Shown here piece by piece: positions 19,018 through 27,553 of a DNA stretch of 39,675 bases. Source of the DNA: Candidatus Frankia nodulisporulans (lineage in GTDB: Bacteria > Actinomycetota > Actinomycetes > Frankiales > Frankiaceae). A program made the position numbers and the translations under genes. The notes under the pieces were generated by a model that saw only the letters and a program-made list of their open reading frames with translations, made no database searches and was not told the origin of the DNA. The stretch covers positions 1 through 39,675 of the forward strand of contig NZ_CADCWS010000014.1 in NCBI RefSeq assembly GCF_902806475.1, read 5' to 3'. The stretch's first letter is position 1. Each line of letters begins with the position of its first letter.

Positions 19018-20538
19018 CTAGATGAAGCCGGCGATGCGGCGCAGGTCGACGATCTGGTCGTCGAGCCAGCGGCGCACGTCGTGGGTGCGGACCTGGTCCG
19101 CGGCGGCGGCCAGCCGGCGATGACGCTCCCCGATCGGCATGGTCAGCGCGGTGTAGAAGGCGTCGGCCATCTGCTGGACGTCGAAGGGCTGCAACGTGAC
19201 GGCGAACTCGCCGAGTTCCTCGTGGGCGCCGGCCATCTCCGACAGGGCGAGCACCCCGCCGCGGCGGTTGACGACGGCCACCTCCTTGGCGACGAGGTTC
19301 ATGCCGTCGGCGATGGCGTTGACGATCAGGACGTCGCAGATGGAGTAGGCGGCGACCGCGAGCGGGAAGTCCTCGACCATGCGCAGGTCGATCGGCTGAC
19401 GGCCCTCCTTGGTGTGCCGGGCGTTGATCTCGGCGACGACCCCGCCGATCAGCGCGATGTAGTCGGCGTACTCGGGGACGTCGGTGCGGCTGGGCTGGAG
19501 CAGAGCGAGGAAGCTCACCCGTCCGACCAGTTCGGGATGCTGGTCGAGCAGGGTGCCGAAGGCGAGGAAGCCGCGCACGACGTTCTTGCTCGGGTCGGTG
19601 CGGTCCACGCGCAGCAGGAGCTGACGGTCGTCGTCGAGGAAGAGGTAGCGCAGCATGGCGACGTGCGCGGCGACCTCCTCGGAGGCCTGGGTGGCGTCCA
19701 GGGCGGCCGGGTCGACCGAGATCGGATAGTAGCGGGCGCGCACCACCCGGTCGCCGACCGTGACGGTGAGCTTGTCGAGGTCGGCCGGTAGGCCGAGCAG
19801 TTCGGCGGCGCACAGCACGAAGTTGCGGGCGTAGCGACGGGTGTGGAAGCCGACGACATCGCTGCCGAGCAGGCCGCGCAGCAGCCGTTCGCGGATGTCC
19901 CCGGGCAGGATGCGCCATTCGTCCGGCCCGGGCCAGGGGATGTGTACGAAGTGGGTGAGCACGACGTCGGGGCACTGCTCCCGCACCCAGTCGGCCACCA
20001 GGTAGAAGTGATAGTCCTGCAACAGGACCAGGGCCTTGCCGCCGCGGGAGCGGACCTCGCTGACCACCGCGTCGGCATAGGCCCGGTTGACCGCCGCGTA
20101 GCCGTTCTCGAACGCGTCGTGCTCGGCGCGGGTGAGCACCGGGGACAGCGAACGGCCGTAGAGACCGTGCTGGATGAACCAGAGGATCGGGTTGGACCAG
20201 ACGCTGTAGAAGTCGGCGTAGGCCGCCGGGTCGGTGACGACGAGACGCACCCGGATCGCCGGGCCCTCGGGTTCGCCGTCCACCAGATGGGGCTGGGGAT
20301 GGGTCTGGACGAGGATGGAGCTGCCGGCGTTCTCCCCGGCGACGACGGTGTCCTCCTCGCTGGCCGCGCCGCATACCCACACGGCGTCATCGAGGTGTTC
20401 GGCGAGCCCGGACAGAGCTGAGACGAGGCCGCCGGCGCCCCGGCCGACGGTGCGACCGGTGGCATCCCGGTCGAAGCTGACGGGGCCGCGGTTGGACAGG
20501 AGCACAAGTGGCAGGTCGAGGGCGATGAAGTCCGACAC
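19018..20538 (-). CDS. otsA: Alpha,alpha-trehalose-phosphate synthase (GT20)
   Basis: OtsA joins UDP- or GDP-glucose to glucose-6-phosphate to give trehalose-6-phosphate, an osmolyte and stress metabolite precursor. The 506-aa length is usual. Motifs: LLSNRGPVSFDRD at the N-terminus, GGLVSALSGL, LLQDYHFYLVADWVRE (the usual HDYHL motif, here with Gln), FVHIPWPGPDEWRILPG, PISVDP, LLRVDRTDPSKNVVRGFLAF with the donor-phosphate Arg and Lys, and DGMNLVAKEVAVVN. Start GTG 20538 follows AGGAGG at 11 bases. No otsB phosphatase is next to it. Specific use as a related GT20 such as glucosylglycerol-phosphate synthase is possible but less likely. Confidence 0.92.
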   Translation of the reverse strand: MSDFIALDLPLVLLSNRGPVSFDRDATGRTVGRGAGGLVSALSGLAEHLDDAVWVCGAASEEDTVVAGENAGSSILVQTHPQPHLVDGEPEGPAIRVRLVVTDPAAYADFYSVWSNPILWFIQHGLYGRSLSPVLTRAEHDAFENGYAAVNRAYADAVVSEVRSRGGKALVLLQDYHFYLVADWVREQCPDVVLTHFVHIPWPGPDEWRILPGDIRERLLRGLLGSDVVGFHTRRYARNFVLCAAELLGLPADLDKLTVTVGDRVVRARYYPISVDPAALDATQASEEVAAHVAMLRYLFLDDDRQLLLRVDRTDPSKNVVRGFLAFGTLLDQHPELVGRVSFLALLQPSRTDVPEYADYIALIGGVVAEINARHTKEGRQPIDLRMVEDFPLAVAAYSICDVLIVNAIADGMNLVAKEVAVVNRRGGVLALSEMAGAHEELGEFAVTLQPFDVQQMADAFYTALTMPIGERHRRLAAAADQVRTHDVRRWLDDQIVDLRRIAGFI

Positions 20539-20813: not shown

Positions 20814-21077
20814 CTACAGGCCGTCTCGGTAGTCCCGGACCTCCTGGACGGCGGAGCCCAGCGACGCGAGCGACATCTGGAGTGTGTCGCGTGTCTCCAC
20901 CAAAGCACTGGTCAACTGCTCGACGGAGCGGTGCTCACTGCCGTCGGTCGCGGCGATCACCATCGCCTGCGCTTCCTCGAGCATGCCGAGTGCGCCCTCG
21001 AGCTGGCCGGCGACCTCCTCGGTCCGCCGGAACGCCTCGTCGAGCTGGGCCTTGACCTCGGCGATCGTGCCTGACAC
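20814..21077 (-). CDS. 87-aa helical protein, last gene of the FtsK-like operon
   Basis: The product (MSGTIAEVKAQLDEAFRRTE, continuing to VRDYRDGL) is almost all alpha-helical with heptad-like spacing. Two helices of about 35-40 residues meet near TDGSEHRSVEQ. The size and helix-turn-helix shape are those of WXG100/Esx secreted proteins, but there is no WxG in the turn and no YxxxD/E tail. GTG 21077 begins six bases after the stop of the four-TM gene, and the ribosome site overlaps that stop. I do not recognise the family. It could be a secretion substrate, a chaperone or a structural partner of the ATPase; the first is the reading suggested by the operon. Confidence 0.65.
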   Translation of the reverse strand: MSGTIAEVKAQLDEAFRRTEEVAGQLEGALGMLEEAQAMVIAATDGSEHRSVEQLTSALVETRDTLQMSLASLGSAVQEVRDYRDGL

Positions 21078-21083
21078 CCGTCC

Positions 21084-22484
21084 TCATCCCTTCCTGGAAG
21101 CGCCGGCGCGAGAGCCGGCCTGTGCCTGCGGCTGCGTCGGCGCGCCGACGCCGAGGCCGAGGCCGAACCGGGCGGCGGCGGCGAGCGCGACGAGCGATCC
21201 GGCGATGGCCACCGGGTCGGTGGGGGCCAACCGGAACGTGGCGAGCACCGCCACCGCGGCGCAGCCCGCTCCCAGCATGCCGGCCCGGGCGATCGCCTTC
21301 ACCCCGACCTCCATCCCGGCGGCCGCGGTGACCAGACCCGAGGCGACCAGCGCCGCCCCGACGACGCACGGCATCCCCGGTGCGTGCGCGAACACCCGCA
21401 GCAGTCCGACGACGGCGAGGCTGAGCAGGCTGGCGAGCGCGGTCATCAGACCCGCGGACGCCGACGCGGCGCCCTTGCTCACCGCCCGCAGTTCCGCGGC
21501 CTTGCTCATCGCGTCCAGACACAGCTCGTAGGCCTGGCGCGGCGCCGTGCGCGGGTCGACCGGCCCGGCCGGTCCGGCCGCCGCGCCGCCCGTGCGAGCG
21601 GATCCCCGCCGTCGGCGGTCGGTTCGATCCGTGGGTGTCGGGCCGACCTGTCCGCCTCGGGTGCGCTCCGCGCCGACCGCCGGGCCATGGCCGGTCCGGG
21701 CCAGCGGTCGACCGGCCCGCCGCCGGCCGCCGCCGCCGCCCGGTGTGGACGCGCCCCCCTTGGTGAGTCGGACCTGGCCGGCCGGTTCCACGGCGGCGGC
21801 GGCGCCGGGGTCGGCGGGACGCAGCTGGTCGAGGTCGGTCAGGCCGTACTGGGCCAGCGGCTCGGCGACCTGCCCCCACACACCGTCGACCCGTGCCCGG
21901 ATGTCCCTGGCGGCCGCGCGGTGACGCTGCGCCTGGGCCCGGCTACCCTGGCGACGATGGTGCGCGTCGCGCCCCGCCCGGGCCCGGGCCACATCCGAGG
22001 TGCCGAGCAGATCCCGGTAACGCGTCGCCGCGCGCCACGGATCCTCCGCCTCCGCCTCCGGCCCCGGGGCAGGTGTGTCCGCCGGCATCGGTGTGCCCGC
22101 CGGCATCGGCACTCCCACGGCCGTCGACGCGGTGGACGCGGCCGCGATGGGCCCTGCCATGGCCGGCGGACCGGTGGGAACCCCGGGTGGGGTGGGGTCG
22201 GGCGGAAGAGCGAACGTGGGGCCGGCGTCCGGCCAGGAACCCGCGATCGACCACAGCCGCGCCGGATCGCGCGGGTCGGCTCCGCTCACGATCTCCCGCG
22301 CCTCCTCGCTCGCCGCCGCCGGGGAGACGGCCCGCGCCGGGGGAACAGTCACGTCCGGACGCCATCCACCGGCCTGCCCGGGCGGTGTGGACCGCCGTGC
22401 CCACCCGGCGCCGGGCTCGGCGGGTTCGGCGCCGTCGCCGTCGGGGGCGCCGCCGCGGTACGGATCATCCTGACCGATCATCAT
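21084..22484 (-). CDS. Pro-rich protein with four C-terminal TM segments, middle gene of the FtsK-like operon
   Basis: I do not recognise this 466-aa protein. Residues 1 to ~145 are Pro/Ala/Gly-rich and disordered. A charged helical stretch (DPWRAATRYRDLLGTSDVAR to DIRARVDGVWGQVAEPLAQY) follows at ~145-210. Next is an Arg/Gly-rich linker, and then about 150 residues with four hydrophobic helices (MTALASLLSLAVVGLLRVF, CVVGAALVASGLVTAAAGM, GMLGAGCAAVAVLATF, IAGSLVALAAAARFGLG). ATG 22484 is used, eight bases after the ATPase stop; ATG 22481 is next. The Arg/Gly linker has weak coding character and two compensating frameshifts there cannot be excluded. It likely anchors the ATPase complex in the membrane. 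Confidence 0.65.
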   Translation of the reverse strand: MMIGQDDPYRGGAPDGDGAEPAEPGAGWARRSTPPGQAGGWRPDVTVPPARAVSPAAASEEAREIVSGADPRDPARLWSIAGSWPDAGPTFALPPDPTPPGVPTGPPAMAGPIAAASTASTAVGVPMPAGTPMPADTPAPGPEAEAEDPWRAATRYRDLLGTSDVARARAGRDAHHRRQGSRAQAQRHRAAARDIRARVDGVWGQVAEPLAQYGLTDLDQLRPADPGAAAAVEPAGQVRLTKGGASTPGGGGGRRRAGRPLARTGHGPAVGAERTRGGQVGPTPTDRTDRRRRGSARTGGAAAGPAGPVDPRTAPRQAYELCLDAMSKAAELRAVSKGAASASAGLMTALASLLSLAVVGLLRVFAHAPGMPCVVGAALVASGLVTAAAGMEVGVKAIARAGMLGAGCAAVAVLATFRLAPTDPVAIAGSLVALAAAARFGLGLGVGAPTQPQAQAGSRAGASRKG

Positions 22485-22491
22485 GGTCTGC

Positions 22492-25400
22492 CTACCCTCG
22501 GACCAGCGGGGCGAACGGGACCACCGTGCGTGGTTCGGACTGGGCATGCCGGTCGAACAGGACGGCCCGGTTGGGCATCGTCCCGCCGGCGACCGGGCGG
22601 TGCCCGGCGAGGGCGAACAGTTCGCTGCCCGGCACGCCCACGGCCGCCCAGGCCGCGATGTCGTCCCGGTTGACCGGGCCGAGATCCTCCGACATCCGCG
22701 ACACGCCCCGCCACCAGCCGATCAGGTGAACGTGCTGGGCCGGGCCACGCCGGGTCAGCGTGCGAAGATCCTCCAGGCCGGTGCGCCGGGTCTGCTCGTC
22801 GCGGGCCTCCAGAGCGGCCCGGCCGGCGTCCATCGCGAACACGACGACGAGCCGCAGCGGTGGCGCCGCGGTGACCGTGCCGGCCAGGGCCGCCTCCTCC
22901 CGCGCGCGGGTCTCGCCGGCGGCGGCGGCGAGCACGGCCCGCAGCCCGGTGACGTCGGTGACCCGGGCCGGATGACCGGCCCGCCGGATTCGCTCGGCCA
23001 GCACCTCGGCCGCGCCCCACGCCATCGGTTCGGCCGCGACGATCTCGACGACCAGCCGGCCGGGTCCGGCCTGCGCGGCGACGCTGGCCGCGGCCGCGGT
23101 CACGATGCCCGTCGCCTCCCGGCGCAGCGGTCCGAGCACCGCGAGGTGACGACCGGGTGAGGCGGCCAGGCGCACCCCGACCGCCGCGGGCGCCAGGTCC
23201 ACCGGGACGCCGACGAGGGCCAGCGGATCCTCCCCCACCGTGGGCACCGGCCGTCCACCGGACGGCGTGCCGACGCCGGGCCCCGCACCGACCATCAGGT
23301 CACCACCCGGTGACACCTGAAGCCCGGTAGCGGCACCGTGATCGGTGACAGCGGCCACCGCGGCGCCGGCGGTGGCGTCGAGGCCGGTGGCGACGTCCAG
23401 GCTCGCGGCGGCGGCGCTGTCGTCACCCGCGCCCACACCGATGCGGTCGACGGCGGCCGGGGCGGGCCGTCCGTCCAGCGCCAGGTAGACGGCGTTGTCG
23501 TCGAGCAGCGCGGGAGCGTGCCCGACGAACACCCGCGGCGGGCGGGCACCGGGCAGGCTGCGGGCGGTGGCGGTGGACAGCCGGTCGCGCAGGCCCGCGA
23601 TCGTGGCCGCGTCGGGATAGGCGACCCGGACGAGTTCGTTGCCCGCCGGATGCCCGTTACGCCGGTTGACGATGGCCTCGCCGACACCGCCGAGGGCGCC
23701 CGCGGCCTCGTTCGCGGTCGAGAGCAGCACCCGCGACTCCGAGATCGACGTGCGCAGGGCCACCCGCAGCGCGAACTGCCCGAAGATCGAACCGCGCTTG
23801 CCCGCGGTGGAGTCGAGCGCGTCGATGCCGGACAGCGTCTGGCTGGCCAGCAGCAGGTGCACGCCGTACGCCCGCCCCTGTCGGGCGAGGACCTCCAGGT
23901 GGGCGACGGCCTCACGGGCGATCTCGTCCAACGGGGTGAGCATGACCTGGAACTCGTCGACGACGACGAGGATCCGCGGCCAGGCCGAGGAGCGGTCGGC
24001 GGCCCGCAGGCCACGCAGGTCCCGGGCGCCGACGGCACGCATCGCCACGGCCCGGCGGCGCATCTGCTCACGCACCGCGCGCAGGACGGCGACCCCGAAC
24101 TCCCGGTCGCTCTCGATTCCGACGGTGTCGGCGTGCGGAAGGTAGAACGGGTCCGCGGGACCGCCGGCGAACTGGGCGAACTCGAGGCCTTCCTTGAAGT
24201 CCAGCAGATGGAAGCGCACCTGCTCGGGCGAGTAGCGCGCGGCGATGCCGTAGACGACGTCGAGCAGCAGCGTCGACTTGCCCGCGCCCGCCTGCCCGCC
24301 GATGAGGGCGTGCACGGTGTCGTCGTCGAAGGTCAGCGCGACCGGCCCGTCGATGCCACGGGCGACCGTCACGGTCACCCCGGAGGAGCTGTCGGACTCC
24401 CACAGGACGTTCGGCAGCAACTCGGTGATGCCCGGGGGGCGCGCCGCGTGCTGGCGGGCGATCTCGGCGATGTGGTTGCTCACCAGGGTGACGATCGGGG
24501 TCGGCGGCGGCCCGTCGAGCACGACCGGCAGCTGGCCGGTCAGCGAGGTCCGCCACAGCCCGGGCTGGATGTCCTGCCAGCCGGCGCGGTGGGTGAGCAG
24601 ATCGACGGAGGTGAACACGACCGAGTTCGGCAGCACCGCGGCCACCGGATCGGTCTCGTCGTCGAAGCCGAGGTCACTGTCGGGGTCGGGCGGCGCCACC
24701 TCGTCCTGATCGCCGCCGCCCTCGCCCGGGTGCCGCGGCTGCGCCTGGACGACGGAGATCACGCTGACGCCGCAGGACGGCCCCTGCGCGGCGATCGCGG
24801 CCAGTGACCGACCGCCCTCCTCGTAGAGCTGCGGCTCGCCCAGCAGGACCAGCACCTGCCACGGCTCGGGCCGGCCACGCCCGGCGTCCTCCCGGTCGCG
24901 CAGCGAGTCGAACTGCCCGCCGAGGCGCTCCACGGTGATCCGTCCGACCTCGTCGGACAGCCGCGACAGCCGTTCCTCGAGTCGGGCCCGGGTGGTGATC
25001 GTCGCCTCGACGACACCGGCGGCTCGCAGCGGTGCGAGGCCGGCGAGCCCCGCACCGAGCTCGTGCGGGTCGTAGACGATCACCCGGACCCGGCCGGCCG
25101 GCACCGCGGCCAGAATTCGGGTGAGCAGACCGCGGACCAGGTCCACCGCGGCACCCCGCTGCGCCCGGGATGTCTCGATCCGCAGGTTGCGGGCATCGAG
25201 CAGTGGCACGGCCAGCGGCACCCGGGTCGCCCCCGGGCCGGCCCCGAGCAGCACGTTGCCGGCCCGCCACAGGCCCGGCCGGTATCGCTGGGAACGCCCC
25301 GGACCGCCAGCACCGCCGCCCTGGGCCGCCAGCCCACCGTCGGCGGTCAGCCCACCGTCGGCCAGTCCACCGTCGGCCAGTCCACCGTCGGCGGTCAGCC

Positions 25401-25668
25401 CCAGCAGGCCGCGTTGCCACTCGGACGAGGACCAGGCAAGGCCCGCGAATCCGCGGGTCCGGGTGCGGGCGATCGCCGCGGCCTCGATGATTTCGGGGCC
25501 GGGGGCGAGCGGGTCGACCGGGTCTCCCGCCGGGTCCCGCCCGCCGGGCCCGCCGCCCCGTTCGAGTTCGTCGGCCTGTGCCTCCAGCCGGTCGGCGAGC
25601 GCGAGCGCCGCGCCCAGCGAGGACTGGATCCCGGCCACGAGCGTGCGCGCTCGCCGGGTTCCCGACAT
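22492..25668 (-). CDS. Large FtsK/SpoIIIE-type ATPase, first gene of the operon
   Basis: The 1058-aa protein carries a full FtsK/SpoIIIE-type motor. Walker A GGQAGAGKST is near residue 460 and Walker B RILVVVDEFQVML near 570, followed by HLLLASQTLSGIDALDSTAG (sensor) and the FALRVALRTSISESRVLL segment typical of EccC and FtsK motors. An N-terminal helix pair (about residues 10-40) precedes a Gly-rich repeat (GGLTADGGLADGG, ~90-112). A second Rossmann-like region (~835-1050, PGRHLAVLGPLRREATG) has the layout of a degenerate ATPase with no intact P-loop. There is no N-terminal TM and no FtsK gamma domain. This organisation is nearer to EccC of type VII secretion than to chromosome-segregating FtsK. 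The family assignment is firm; the role is inferred. Confidence 0.85.
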   Translation of the reverse strand: MSGTRRARTLVAGIQSSLGAALALADRLEAQADELERGGGPGGRDPAGDPVDPLAPGPEIIEAAAIARTRTRGFAGLAWSSSEWQRGLLGLTADGGLADGGLADGGLTADGGLAAQGGGAGGPGRSQRYRPGLWRAGNVLLGAGPGATRVPLAVPLLDARNLRIETSRAQRGAAVDLVRGLLTRILAAVPAGRVRVIVYDPHELGAGLAGLAPLRAAGVVEATITTRARLEERLSRLSDEVGRITVERLGGQFDSLRDREDAGRGRPEPWQVLVLLGEPQLYEEGGRSLAAIAAQGPSCGVSVISVVQAQPRHPGEGGGDQDEVAPPDPDSDLGFDDETDPVAAVLPNSVVFTSVDLLTHRAGWQDIQPGLWRTSLTGQLPVVLDGPPPTPIVTLVSNHIAEIARQHAARPPGITELLPNVLWESDSSSGVTVTVARGIDGPVALTFDDDTVHALIGGQAGAGKSTLLLDVVYGIAARYSPEQVRFHLLDFKEGLEFAQFAGGPADPFYLPHADTVGIESDREFGVAVLRAVREQMRRRAVAMRAVGARDLRGLRAADRSSAWPRILVVVDEFQVMLTPLDEIAREAVAHLEVLARQGRAYGVHLLLASQTLSGIDALDSTAGKRGSIFGQFALRVALRTSISESRVLLSTANEAAGALGGVGEAIVNRRNGHPAGNELVRVAYPDAATIAGLRDRLSTATARSLPGARPPRVFVGHAPALLDDNAVYLALDGRPAPAAVDRIGVGAGDDSAAAASLDVATGLDATAGAAVAAVTDHGAATGLQVSPGGDLMVGAGPGVGTPSGGRPVPTVGEDPLALVGVPVDLAPAAVGVRLAASPGRHLAVLGPLRREATGIVTAAAASVAAQAGPGRLVVEIVAAEPMAWGAAEVLAERIRRAGHPARVTDVTGLRAVLAAAAGETRAREEAALAGTVTAAPPLRLVVVFAMDAGRAALEARDEQTRRTGLEDLRTLTRRGPAQHVHLIGWWRGVSRMSEDLGPVNRDDIAAWAAVGVPGSELFALAGHRPVAGGTMPNRAVLFDRHAQSEPRTVVPFAPLVRG
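25334..25399. repeat. Short tandem repeat coding for GGLxADGG in the ATPase gene
   Basis: Four units of 18, 15, 15 and 18 bp beginning CCACCGTCGG lie head to tail. All lengths are multiples of three, so changes in copy number keep the frame and only lengthen a flexible linker. Confidence 0.85.
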
Positions 25669-26853: not shown

Positions 26854-26884
26854 GCGACGTCGCCGCACGAGTGGACCGTTCAGG

Positions 26885-27028
26885 GGTCCAGCCGGTCCAG
26901 GCGGTCCAGGCGGTCCAGGCGGTCCAGGCGGTCCAGGCGGTCCAGCCGGTCCAGGCGGTCCAGCCGGTCCAGGCGGTCCAGCCGGTCCAGGCGGTCCAGC
27001 CGGTCCAGGCGGTTCAGCCGGTCCAGGC
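26885..27028. repeat. Sixteen-unit 9-bp tandem repeat (GGTCCAGGC / GGTCCAGCC)
   Basis: Exactly 144 bases made of 16 nine-base units with only two common versions, ending GGC or GCC. The units alternate from the seventh onward. One unit (27011-27019) has GGTTCAGCC, and on the minus strand that T makes the TGA stop of the MerR gene. It fills the gap between that gene and the convergent HAD gene. No cap, spacer or palindrome pattern of CRISPR type is seen. Confidence 0.95.
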
Positions 27029-27553
27029 GCTGCTGCGGCGGGTGGCCAGCTCGTCGCCGGGATGGCTGGCGGGCGGATCCCCGGGACGCTCGCAGGGCAG
27101 CTCGGCCAGCTGGCCGCGCATGTCGCGCAGGGCCCGGCCGACGGCGATCGCGAACACGCCCTGCCCCCCGCGGACAAGATCGATCACCTGGTCGTCCGAG
27201 GTGCACTCGTAGACGGTCGACCCGTCGCTGATCAGCGTCAGCTGGGCCAGATCGTCCACCCCGCGGGTCCGTAGGTGTTCGACGGCGACCCGGATGTTCT
27301 GCAGCGACACCCCCGCTTCCAGCAGCTTGCGCACCACGCGCAGGACGAGGACGTCCCGGAACGAGTAGAGCCGCTGACTGCCCGAGCCCGACGCGTCGCG
27401 GACGCTGGGCACGACCAGCCCGGTGCGGGCCCAGTAGTCGAGCTGGCGGTAGGTGATCCCCGCCGCCGAGCAGGCCGTCGGCCCGCGGTACCCGACGTCG
27501 TCCCCGGGTGGTTCGGGTATCTCACCCGGGAACAGCTGGCCCTGTTCGATCAT
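27014..27553 (-). CDS. MerR-family regulator, Rv1830-like
   Basis: The 179-aa protein has an N-terminal winged HTH (GYRGPTACSAAGITYRQLDY, ARTGLVVPSV, GSGSQRLYSFRDVLVLRVV) and a conserved second part (VSLQNIRVAVEHLRTRGVDD, DGSTVYECTSDDQVIDL, GGQGVFAIAV). Both parts match what I know of Rv1830, a regulator at the end of the same gene block in mycobacteria. It lacks the usual metal-binding C-terminus, so its effector is unknown. ATG 27553 is used; GTG four codons earlier is possible. The last residues and the stop fall inside the 9-bp repeat array. Confidence 0.88.
   Translation of the reverse strand: MIEQGQLFPGEIPEPPGDDVGYRGPTACSAAGITYRQLDYWARTGLVVPSVRDASGSGSQRLYSFRDVLVLRVVRKLLEAGVSLQNIRVAVEHLRTRGVDDLAQLTLISDGSTVYECTSDDQVIDLVRGGQGVFAIAVGRALRDMRGQLAELPCERPGDPPASHPGDELATRRSSAWTG

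What the first reader, a model, noticed from the sequence alone, without database searches (positions are those of the whole stretch)
20814..25668. Three-gene FtsK-like ATPase operon resembling a reduced type VII secretion system
Seen: a 1058-aa FtsK/SpoIIIE ATPase with one intact and one degenerate motor region and no TM, then a four-TM Pro-rich protein after 8 bases, then an 87-aa two-helix protein after 6 bases. Known: type VII systems pair an EccC ATPase with small helical WXG100 proteins and membrane parts. Inference: this is a compact, WxG-less relative in which the small protein is substrate or adaptor and the four-TM protein is the membrane platform. No eccB, eccD, eccE or mycosin gene is in the window.
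Basis: partly seen in the sequence, partly recalled or inferred. Interest (0 to 1): 0.75.

Follow-up and report, generated by a model that had tools for sequence, protein, structure and literature searches.

The report
Type VII-like motor operon without WXG
Frankia and many other soil actinobacteria carry a conserved three-gene unit (an EccC/EssC-like motor without membrane anchor, a coiled-coil membrane protein and an 86-87-residue two-helix protein) that looks like a stripped-down cousin of type VII secretion whose small partner has lost the usual WXG signature; nobody has yet shown what it moves.

Summary
The operon is real. [quoted passage not shown] A 466-aa coiled-coil plus four-TM protein and an 87-aa helical hairpin (AlphaFold pLDDT 93.9) follow. 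The set, next to otsA, is syntenic across Frankiaceae. Divergent versions (hairpin plus ATPase, mostly plus a multi-TM protein) occur in Micromonosporaceae, Pseudonocardiaceae and others: a hairpin-sized neighbour in 13/13 and 50/52 complete loci, against 5/114 for control genes. An ATPase tree splits this clade from EccC (100/100) and from chromosomal FtsK. Other branches pair the ATPase with W-x-D hairpins, most of which match Pfam WXG100, one annotated so. This architecture is published as a minimal or mobile 'solo WXG' system (Zhang 2012; Bell 2024). The window belongs to a vertically inherited branch whose hairpin has no tryptophan, has a GSxH turn and keeps a C-terminal aromatic residue. 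Verdict: new variant of a known kind; most likely a membrane-tethered motor whose hairpin is adaptor or cargo.

The parts
22492..25668 (-). 1058-aa TM-less FtsK/EccC-superfamily ATPase with three tandem motor-type domains
   Evidence: Pfam FtsK_SpoIIIE 3.2e-19; NCBIfam EccCa 6.5e-25, 88 bits, below the 509-bit cut-off; AF2 model pLDDT 81.8; EccC 4nh0 aligned over 748 residues, Z 26.3, rmsd 12.8
24514..25272 (-). D1 (about residues 133-385), degenerate domain: no P-loop at the equivalent position
   Evidence: weak FtsK-profile hits in this region of orthologs (5-23 bits); no conserved GxxGxGKS in 47 sequences
23524..24432 (-). D2 (about residues 413-715), the only intact motor domain
   Evidence: G457 G458 G461 G463 K464 and D571 E572 invariant in 47 of 47 sequences; FtsK motor 6t8b Z 29.7, rmsd 2.6 over 275 residues
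24271..24300 (-). Walker A GGQAGAGKST (residues 457-466)
23953..23973 (-). Walker B ILVVVDE (residues 566-572)
22513..23223 (-). D3 (about residues 816-1052), degenerate domain, structural counterpart of EssC D3
   Evidence: EssC D3 6tv1 Z 17.1, 222 residues, rmsd 3.5; P-loop position reads GPLRRE
21084..22484 (-). 466-aa membrane partner: Pro-rich N-terminus, coiled-coil segment (about 150-215), four C-terminal hydrophobic segments
   Evidence: no Pfam or NCBIfam match; conserved in 14 Frankiaceae at 38-82% identity; hydropathy scan counts 3-4 TM in most orthologs
20814..21077 (-). 87-aa helical hairpin, no Trp, TDGSEH turn, C-terminal YRDGL
   Evidence: AF2 pLDDT 93.9; 75-98% identity in Frankiaceae, 24-31% to the 86-aa relatives; unbiased HMM search
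20931..20948 (-). TDGSEH turn, at the hairpin position held by W-x-D/W-x-G in relatives
20817..20831 (-). conserved C-terminal YRDGL
   Evidence: Y83 and L87 at least 90% conserved in 45 sequences; an aromatic near the C-terminus in 17 of 18 families
19018..20538 (-). otsA (trehalose-6-phosphate synthase), constant downstream neighbour in Frankiaceae; probably not part of the machine
   Evidence: Glyco_transf_20 1e-100; synteny; spacing 3-1862 bp between species

Best explanation
The operon encodes a minimal, membrane-tethered, type VII-like motor. Shown by sequence or model: a soluble EccC/EssC-superfamily ATPase with D1 and D3 degenerate and D2 intact, a conserved coiled-coil plus four-TM partner, and a conserved 86-87-aa hairpin near the ATPase in nearly all loci. 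Inferred: the ATPase assembles as a hexamer; the coiled-coil TM protein replaces the N-terminal TM segments of EccC and holds the motor at the membrane; the hairpin, probably as a dimer, docks its C-terminal Tyr/Leu end on a motor domain (D3 by analogy with EsxB on EccC ATPase 3) and switches on or feeds the D2 motor, acting as adaptor or exported cargo. The clade shares ancestry with TM-less ATPases that have WXG100-type partners; in the branch leading to Frankiaceae, Micromonosporaceae and Pseudonocardiaceae the hairpin has no W-x-D/W-x-G turn and the locus sits at a fixed chromosomal place.
For: Three-domain, middle-active architecture, as described for TM-less EssC homologs with WXG100 partners. 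Structural match to EccC and EssC over most of the chain. ATPase tree: clade against EccC 100/100; partner hairpin type maps with 2 changes, the least possible, against 14.1 shuffled. W-x-D partners of other branches: W and D invariant, Pfam WXG100 in 7 of 9, best 3.6e-7; one is annotated WXG100 on a Caballeronia plasmid. Co-occurrence: 13/13 and 50/52 (49 by the script plus L198, whose 107-aa neighbour belongs to the hairpin cluster) against 5/114 control genes; all 22 genomes with the hairpin HMM also carry the ATPase. C-terminal aromatic in 17 of 18 partner families against 3.9 in shuffles.
Against: hhalign between the GSxH hairpins and the W-x-D hairpins is not significant (E 0.092), and for the Frankiaceae protein itself WXG100 is not among the Pfam hits. 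A helical hairpin is a common fold (generic PDB matches). Pseudonocardiaceae loci lack the multi-TM partner, having a 105-145-aa protein without TM instead. No effector-like cargo gene is linked in Frankiaceae. The TM partners of different families are only weakly similar (hhalign probability 7%). The YxxxD/E export signal is absent. Nothing shows export.
Confidence: 0.5

Rival explanations
1. A DNA motor: the ATPase is a membrane-anchored FtsK-like DNA translocase used in mycelial septation or sporulation, and the hairpin is a regulatory or clamp subunit.
For: The active domain aligns best with the FtsK motor (Z 29.7, 26% identity); related DNA-directed ATPases SspH and mad8 match at 2e-19 and 4e-19; many named carriers (Frankia, Micromonospora, Saccharopolyspora, Actinopolyspora) are mycelial, spore-forming genera (own knowledge).
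Against: Sequence matches are better to EccC (88 and 92.8 bits) than to FtsK (27.6 and 38.7 bits); chromosomal FtsK falls outside the clade in the tree (98/96, though on a long branch); no gamma domain or DNA-binding domain was recognised; the constant partner is a hairpin of WXG100 size.
Confidence: 0.25
2. A stress or defence assembly in which the motor acts inside the cell (protein remodelling or anti-phage action) rather than as an exporter.
For: Relatives sit with TerD (and one is fused to TerD), with vWA/PP2C/kinase, or with Hsp70/GrpE on plasmids; the same ATPase type is part of extended CoCoNuT loci; in Frankiaceae it adjoins trehalose synthesis.
Against: In Frankiaceae and Micromonosporaceae it is chromosomal, syntenic and without defence-gene neighbours noticed; within Frankiaceae it was missed only in G012 (contig break), G015 (63% complete) and the 3.0-Mb genome G018, unlike patchy defence genes.
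Confidence: 0.15
3. A true reduced ESX (T7SSa) that lost eccB, eccD, eccE and mycP.
For: EccC is the best-scoring named family.
Against: The clade is separated from EccC at 100/100 and the same genome keeps separate EccC-type genes; only one motor domain is active; no WXG motif.
Confidence: 0.04

Closest known systems
TM-less EssC-like ATPase plus solo WXG100 ('mobile' or 'minimal' T7SS; Zhang 2012 PMC3482391, Bell 2024 PMC11090510; Anantharaman 2012 as cited there)
   Same: Three FtsK/HerA domains with only the middle active, no TM in the ATPase, adjacent small helical protein
   Different: Here chromosomal and syntenic, hairpin without WXG, a dedicated coiled-coil four-TM partner, no long N-terminal coiled coil on the ATPase, no vWA/kinase/nuclease neighbours
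ESX/T7SSa EccC and T7SSb EssC
   Same: Superfamily, tandem motor domains, small helical hairpin partner
   Different: EccC/EssC are membrane-bound with 2 TM, have further phylum-specific components and WXG100 proteins; here a separate TM protein and a single intact motor
T7SSc-T7SSj (Garrett 2024 PMC11217815)
   Same: Idea of variant component sets around an EccC-like ATPase and a small hairpin
   Different: Abstract and the first three of seven text parts were read: all are built on membrane-bound EssC orthologs; no TM-less, WXG-less actinobacterial type appears there
DUF6244 (PF19757)
   Same: A DUF6244 protein (2.1e-27) takes the hairpin's place beside a relative of the ATPase (L098)
   Different: The window's protein matches DUF6244 only at E 0.15
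SspH / mad8 ATPases of phage-defence systems
   Same: Related FtsK/HerA motor domain
   Different: Lower score than EccC; no Ssp or MADS partner genes recognised next to the operon

Membership tests
Type VII secretion system (T7SSa-j) | Multi-domain FtsK/EccC-type ATPase | tested here: met
Type VII secretion system (T7SSa-j) | ATPase carries N-terminal transmembrane segments | tested here: not met
   no hydrophobic N-terminal segment in the sequence; helices 3-36, 57-70 and 83-95 are charged, then soluble alpha/beta domains from residue 133
Type VII secretion system (T7SSa-j) | WXG100 protein with Trp-x-Gly turn | tested here: not met
   87-aa hairpin has no Trp; Pfam WXG100 not among its hits
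Type VII secretion system (T7SSa-j) | C-terminal YxxxD/E export motif (T7SSa substrates) | tested here: not met
   C-terminus YRDGL; Y83 is only 4 residues from the end and the residue at +4 is Leu
Type VII secretion system (T7SSa-j) | EccB/EccD or other known envelope components | tested here: inconclusive
   none recognised next to the operon; genome search for EccB and EccD rang in no genome, controls included
Type VII secretion system (T7SSa-j) | Exports its small partner | not testable with these tools
   needs a secretion assay
TM-less EssC-like ATPase / solo WXG100 system | Three FtsK/HerA domains, only the middle one active | tested here: met
TM-less EssC-like ATPase / solo WXG100 system | ATPase without TM | tested here: met
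   and sequence
TM-less EssC-like ATPase / solo WXG100 system | ATPase clades with WXG-type-partnered relatives, apart from EccC | tested here: met
   100/100
TM-less EssC-like ATPase / solo WXG100 system | WXG100 partner | tested here: not met
   hairpin lacks the motif; profile comparison to the W-x-D partners not significant
TM-less EssC-like ATPase / solo WXG100 system | Long N-terminal coiled coil on the ATPase | tested here: inconclusive
   only short helices at the N-terminus; a coiled coil lies in the TM partner instead
Chromosomal FtsK/SpoIIIE | Groups with the genome's own FtsK | tested here: not met
   own FtsK is a separate gene and falls outside the clade, on a long branch
Conjugative translocase (TcpA/TraB/VirD4) | Sequence-level match to coupling proteins | tested here: inconclusive
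   no significant family hit (TrwB E 0.18); TcpA is structurally similar (Z 27), as this whole superfamily is; not placed in the tree

The most novel reading that the evidence does not exclude
A distinct class of type VII-like machine, present across many mycelial actinobacteria as a vertically inherited chromosomal trait, that works with a separate membrane anchor and a hairpin partner which has dispensed with the WXG signature, showing that the C-terminal aromatic end rather than the WXG turn is the essential recognition feature.
Probability: 0.3. Interest if true: 0.75.

Novelty: new variant of a known kind. Interest (0 to 1): 0.55.

Why it matters
It would show the smallest known parts list of a type VII-like motor and separate what is essential (motor, hairpin, aromatic C-terminus) from what is lineage-specific (TM segments in the ATPase, WXG turn, EccB/D/E or EssA/B). 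The Frankiaceae and Micromonosporaceae versions sit at fixed chromosomal places, so the open question of what TM-less EssC-like ATPases do becomes testable by clean deletion in culturable strains.

Tried and rejected
One search failed (machine) and was repeated. Fold search with the hairpin gave only generic helical hairpins and cannot decide between WXG100 and other hairpins. hhalign of the hairpin families and of the TM partners was not significant. The weak GrpE, Mis12 and CENP-H Pfam hits of the 87-aa protein (E 0.003-0.04, below cut-off) were rejected as coiled-coil noise. Genome searches for EccB and EccD rang nowhere, controls included, so say nothing. The L108 and L121 ATPases first clustered with this family but fall among EccC-like proteins in the tree and were dropped. 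Anantharaman 2012 is not held; it is cited here only through other papers. A complex of hairpin and ATPase could not be predicted with the tools (single chains only).
Full report
Observation. The operon is on the minus strand: ATPase 25668-22492 (1058 aa), four-TM protein 22484-21084 (466 aa from the first ATG after the ATPase stop; gap 7 bases, not 8), hairpin 21077-20814 (87 aa, gap 6). A trehalose-phosphate synthase gene follows.

The ATPase. Pfam finds FtsK_SpoIIIE at residues 425-613, E 3.2e-19. The best named families are type VII EccC (NCBIfam EccCa 88 bits against a cut-off of 509; PDB EccC 4nh0 92.8 bits, FtsK 38.7 bits). AlphaFold2 with 47 homologs gives pLDDT 81.8 and three alpha/beta blocks: about 133-385, 413-715 and 816-1052. 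In 47 of 47 sequences G457, G458, G461, G463, K464, D571 and E572 are invariant, whereas the equivalent places of the first and third blocks carry no P-loop. A profile of the middle domain hits both flanks weakly in orthologs (about 5-23 bits). The model aligns with EccC 4nh0 over 748 residues (Z 26.3, rmsd 12.8, so domain arrangement differs), with EssC domains 2-3 over 496 residues (Z 27.4) and with EssC D3 alone (Z 17.1); the middle domain aligns with the FtsK motor at Z 29.7. Whether the first block corresponds to EccC ATPase 1 or to its N-terminal DUF domain is not settled (both alignments occur). No TM segment precedes it.

The partners. The 87-aa protein is predicted as a hairpin, helices 2-43 and 50-86. 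It has no tryptophan. It is the most conserved of the three parts: 75-98% identity within Frankiaceae, against 59-88% for the ATPase and 38-82% for the TM protein. The TM protein has a Pro-rich N-terminus, a coiled-coil segment and four hydrophobic segments, and no family match.

Do the genes stay together? In the Frankiaceae neighbourhoods the order is ATPase, TM protein, 87-aa, otsA (L090 shows no called TM gene in a gap). Named relatives of the ATPase occur in Frankia, Parafrankia, Pseudofrankia, Protofrankia, Micromonospora, Salinispora, Catellatospora, Longispora, Saccharopolyspora, Actinopolyspora, Pseudonocardia and Stackebrandtia; 576 candidate stretches encode a relative at tblastn E 1e-3, a loose count that will include EccC-like proteins. 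Counting loci with complete flanks, a hairpin-sized non-TM gene lies on the same strand within 2.6 kb in 13 of 13 Frankiaceae and 50 of 52 others (49 by script; L198 has the hairpin-cluster member in a 107-aa call), against 5 of 114 control genes; a multi-TM neighbour in 13 of 13 and 39 of 52. Many of the 52 are close Micromonospora species, so they are not independent. The order varies: in Micromonospora the 86-aa gene comes first and a ~220-aa three-TM gene last; Saccharopolyspora and relatives have an 86-aa and an 83-aa hairpin before the ATPase and no multi-TM gene, but a 105-145-aa protein without TM. Independently, an HMM of the hairpin finds 22 of 247 class genomes, one copy each; all 22 carry the ATPase, and the two lie together except where assemblies are fragmented. 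G012, which seemed to lack the ATPase, has the hairpin at a contig end; the 3.0-Mb genome G018 (94% complete) lacks both.

Where does the ATPase belong? In a tree of the active domain the family separates from EccC and, on a long branch, from the genome's own FtsK (98/96); without the long rows, EccC against the rest is 100/100. Other branches of the same clade have 87-93-aa hairpins with an invariant W-x-D turn and Y-L at the end of helix 2; seven of nine match Pfam WXG100, best 3.6e-7, and the Caballeronia one is annotated WXG100 in the record, beside vWA, PP2C and kinase genes. Labelled by partner, the tree needs 2 changes, the least possible, shuffled mean 14.1; one origin of the no-Trp state is not ruled out (63% of bootstrap trees). 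Some rows labelled no-Trp have no confirmed hairpin (cut flanks, or L091-type loci with a 201-aa helical protein), so this is a pattern, not proof.

Is the hairpin a WXG100 relative? Not shown directly. hhalign of the GSxH set against the W-x-D set gives E 0.092. WXG100 is the Pfam family hit by most members of the A4 set (16 of 45, best 0.0011) but not by the window protein. What both sets share is length, hairpin, position next to the ATPase and an aromatic residue near the C-terminus: 17 of 18 families against 3.9 expected from shuffles (0 of 20,000 reach 17) and 18% of control small proteins. That test was made after the pattern had been noticed, and the families are not all independent.

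Prior art. [quoted passage not shown] Bell 2024 describes TM-less EssC homologs in CoCoNuT loci, central domain active, with two WXG100 proteins, one lacking the motif, and infers secretion by a different mechanism. A Helicobacter study calls WxG plus FtsK a minimal T7SS, after Anantharaman 2012. Garrett 2024 lists T7SSa-j from membrane-bound ATPases (abstract and the first three of seven parts read). None of the text read describes the Frankiaceae or Micromonosporaceae system.

Mechanism. From the anatomy I infer a hexameric motor tethered by the coiled-coil TM protein, with the hairpin as adaptor or cargo docking by its C-terminal end, possibly on D3, the counterpart of the EccC domain that binds the EsxB tail (the last point from general knowledge of EccC). 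Shown: domains, conservation, co-occurrence, phylogeny. Inferred: hexamer, tether, docking, transport. A DNA-motor role and an intracellular stress or defence role remain open: relatives sit with TerD (one fused to it), Hsp70 and GrpE, and SspH and mad8 defence ATPases match at about 1e-19.

Verdict. Real, conserved, functionally unknown; a chromosomally fixed, WXG-less variant of the TM-less EssC-like class. It works, probably, like a type VII motor; it is not filed as a T7SS because the TM segments of the ATPase and the WXG motif were tested and are absent, and it is not filed as a plain member of the solo-WXG100 class because its hairpin lacks that motif.

Noticed in passing
L208:5699-9667 (Rhodococcus sp. 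AH-ZY2 plasmid, NZ_CP126457.1): Relative of the ATPase with a TerD domain fused at its N-terminus (Pfam 4.4e-19, residues 1-156) and TerD genes next door, linking the clade to Ter stress systems.
   Followed up: partly
L100:5377-7926 and L102:5365-8175 (G216, G124): Paralogs of the ATPase whose middle-domain Walker A is also broken (SGRSQAGRS, SGRSDADRS), so apparently pseudo-motors; no hairpin gene was called beside them.
   Followed up: no
L115:3653-4431 (G543, 1.8-Mb genome, same phylum): Three tandem 81-83-aa hairpin-like genes follow the ATPase, each with a Tyr near the C-terminus.
   Followed up: no
L103:10456-11286 and L105:3858-4433: Otherwise different proteins near the hairpin share a C-terminal stretch (VNDPVTA / VDNPVSA ... 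WE ... RRR), perhaps a recognition tail for the motor.
   Followed up: no
L209:2880-15434 (Caballeronia sp. SBC2 plasmid pSBC2-5): ATPase relative, WXG100, two vWA proteins, PP2C, Ser/Thr kinase and a CARF protein in one run of genes: a TerY-P-like cluster on a plasmid.
   Followed up: partly
window 26881-27029: Tandem array of an 18-base unit, 8.3 copies at 96% match, between the HAD-type gene and the MerR-type gene upstream of the operon.
   Followed up: no
window 25328-25392: In-frame 15-base repeat inside the ATPase gene (LADGG units in the N-terminal linker), in a low-confidence part of the model.
   Followed up: no
L109, L110, L239, L240, L241 (Frankiaceae): Some Frankiaceae carry a second ATPase paralog (about 33% identity) with its own W-x-D hairpin, so both partner types can coexist in one genome.
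   Followed up: partly
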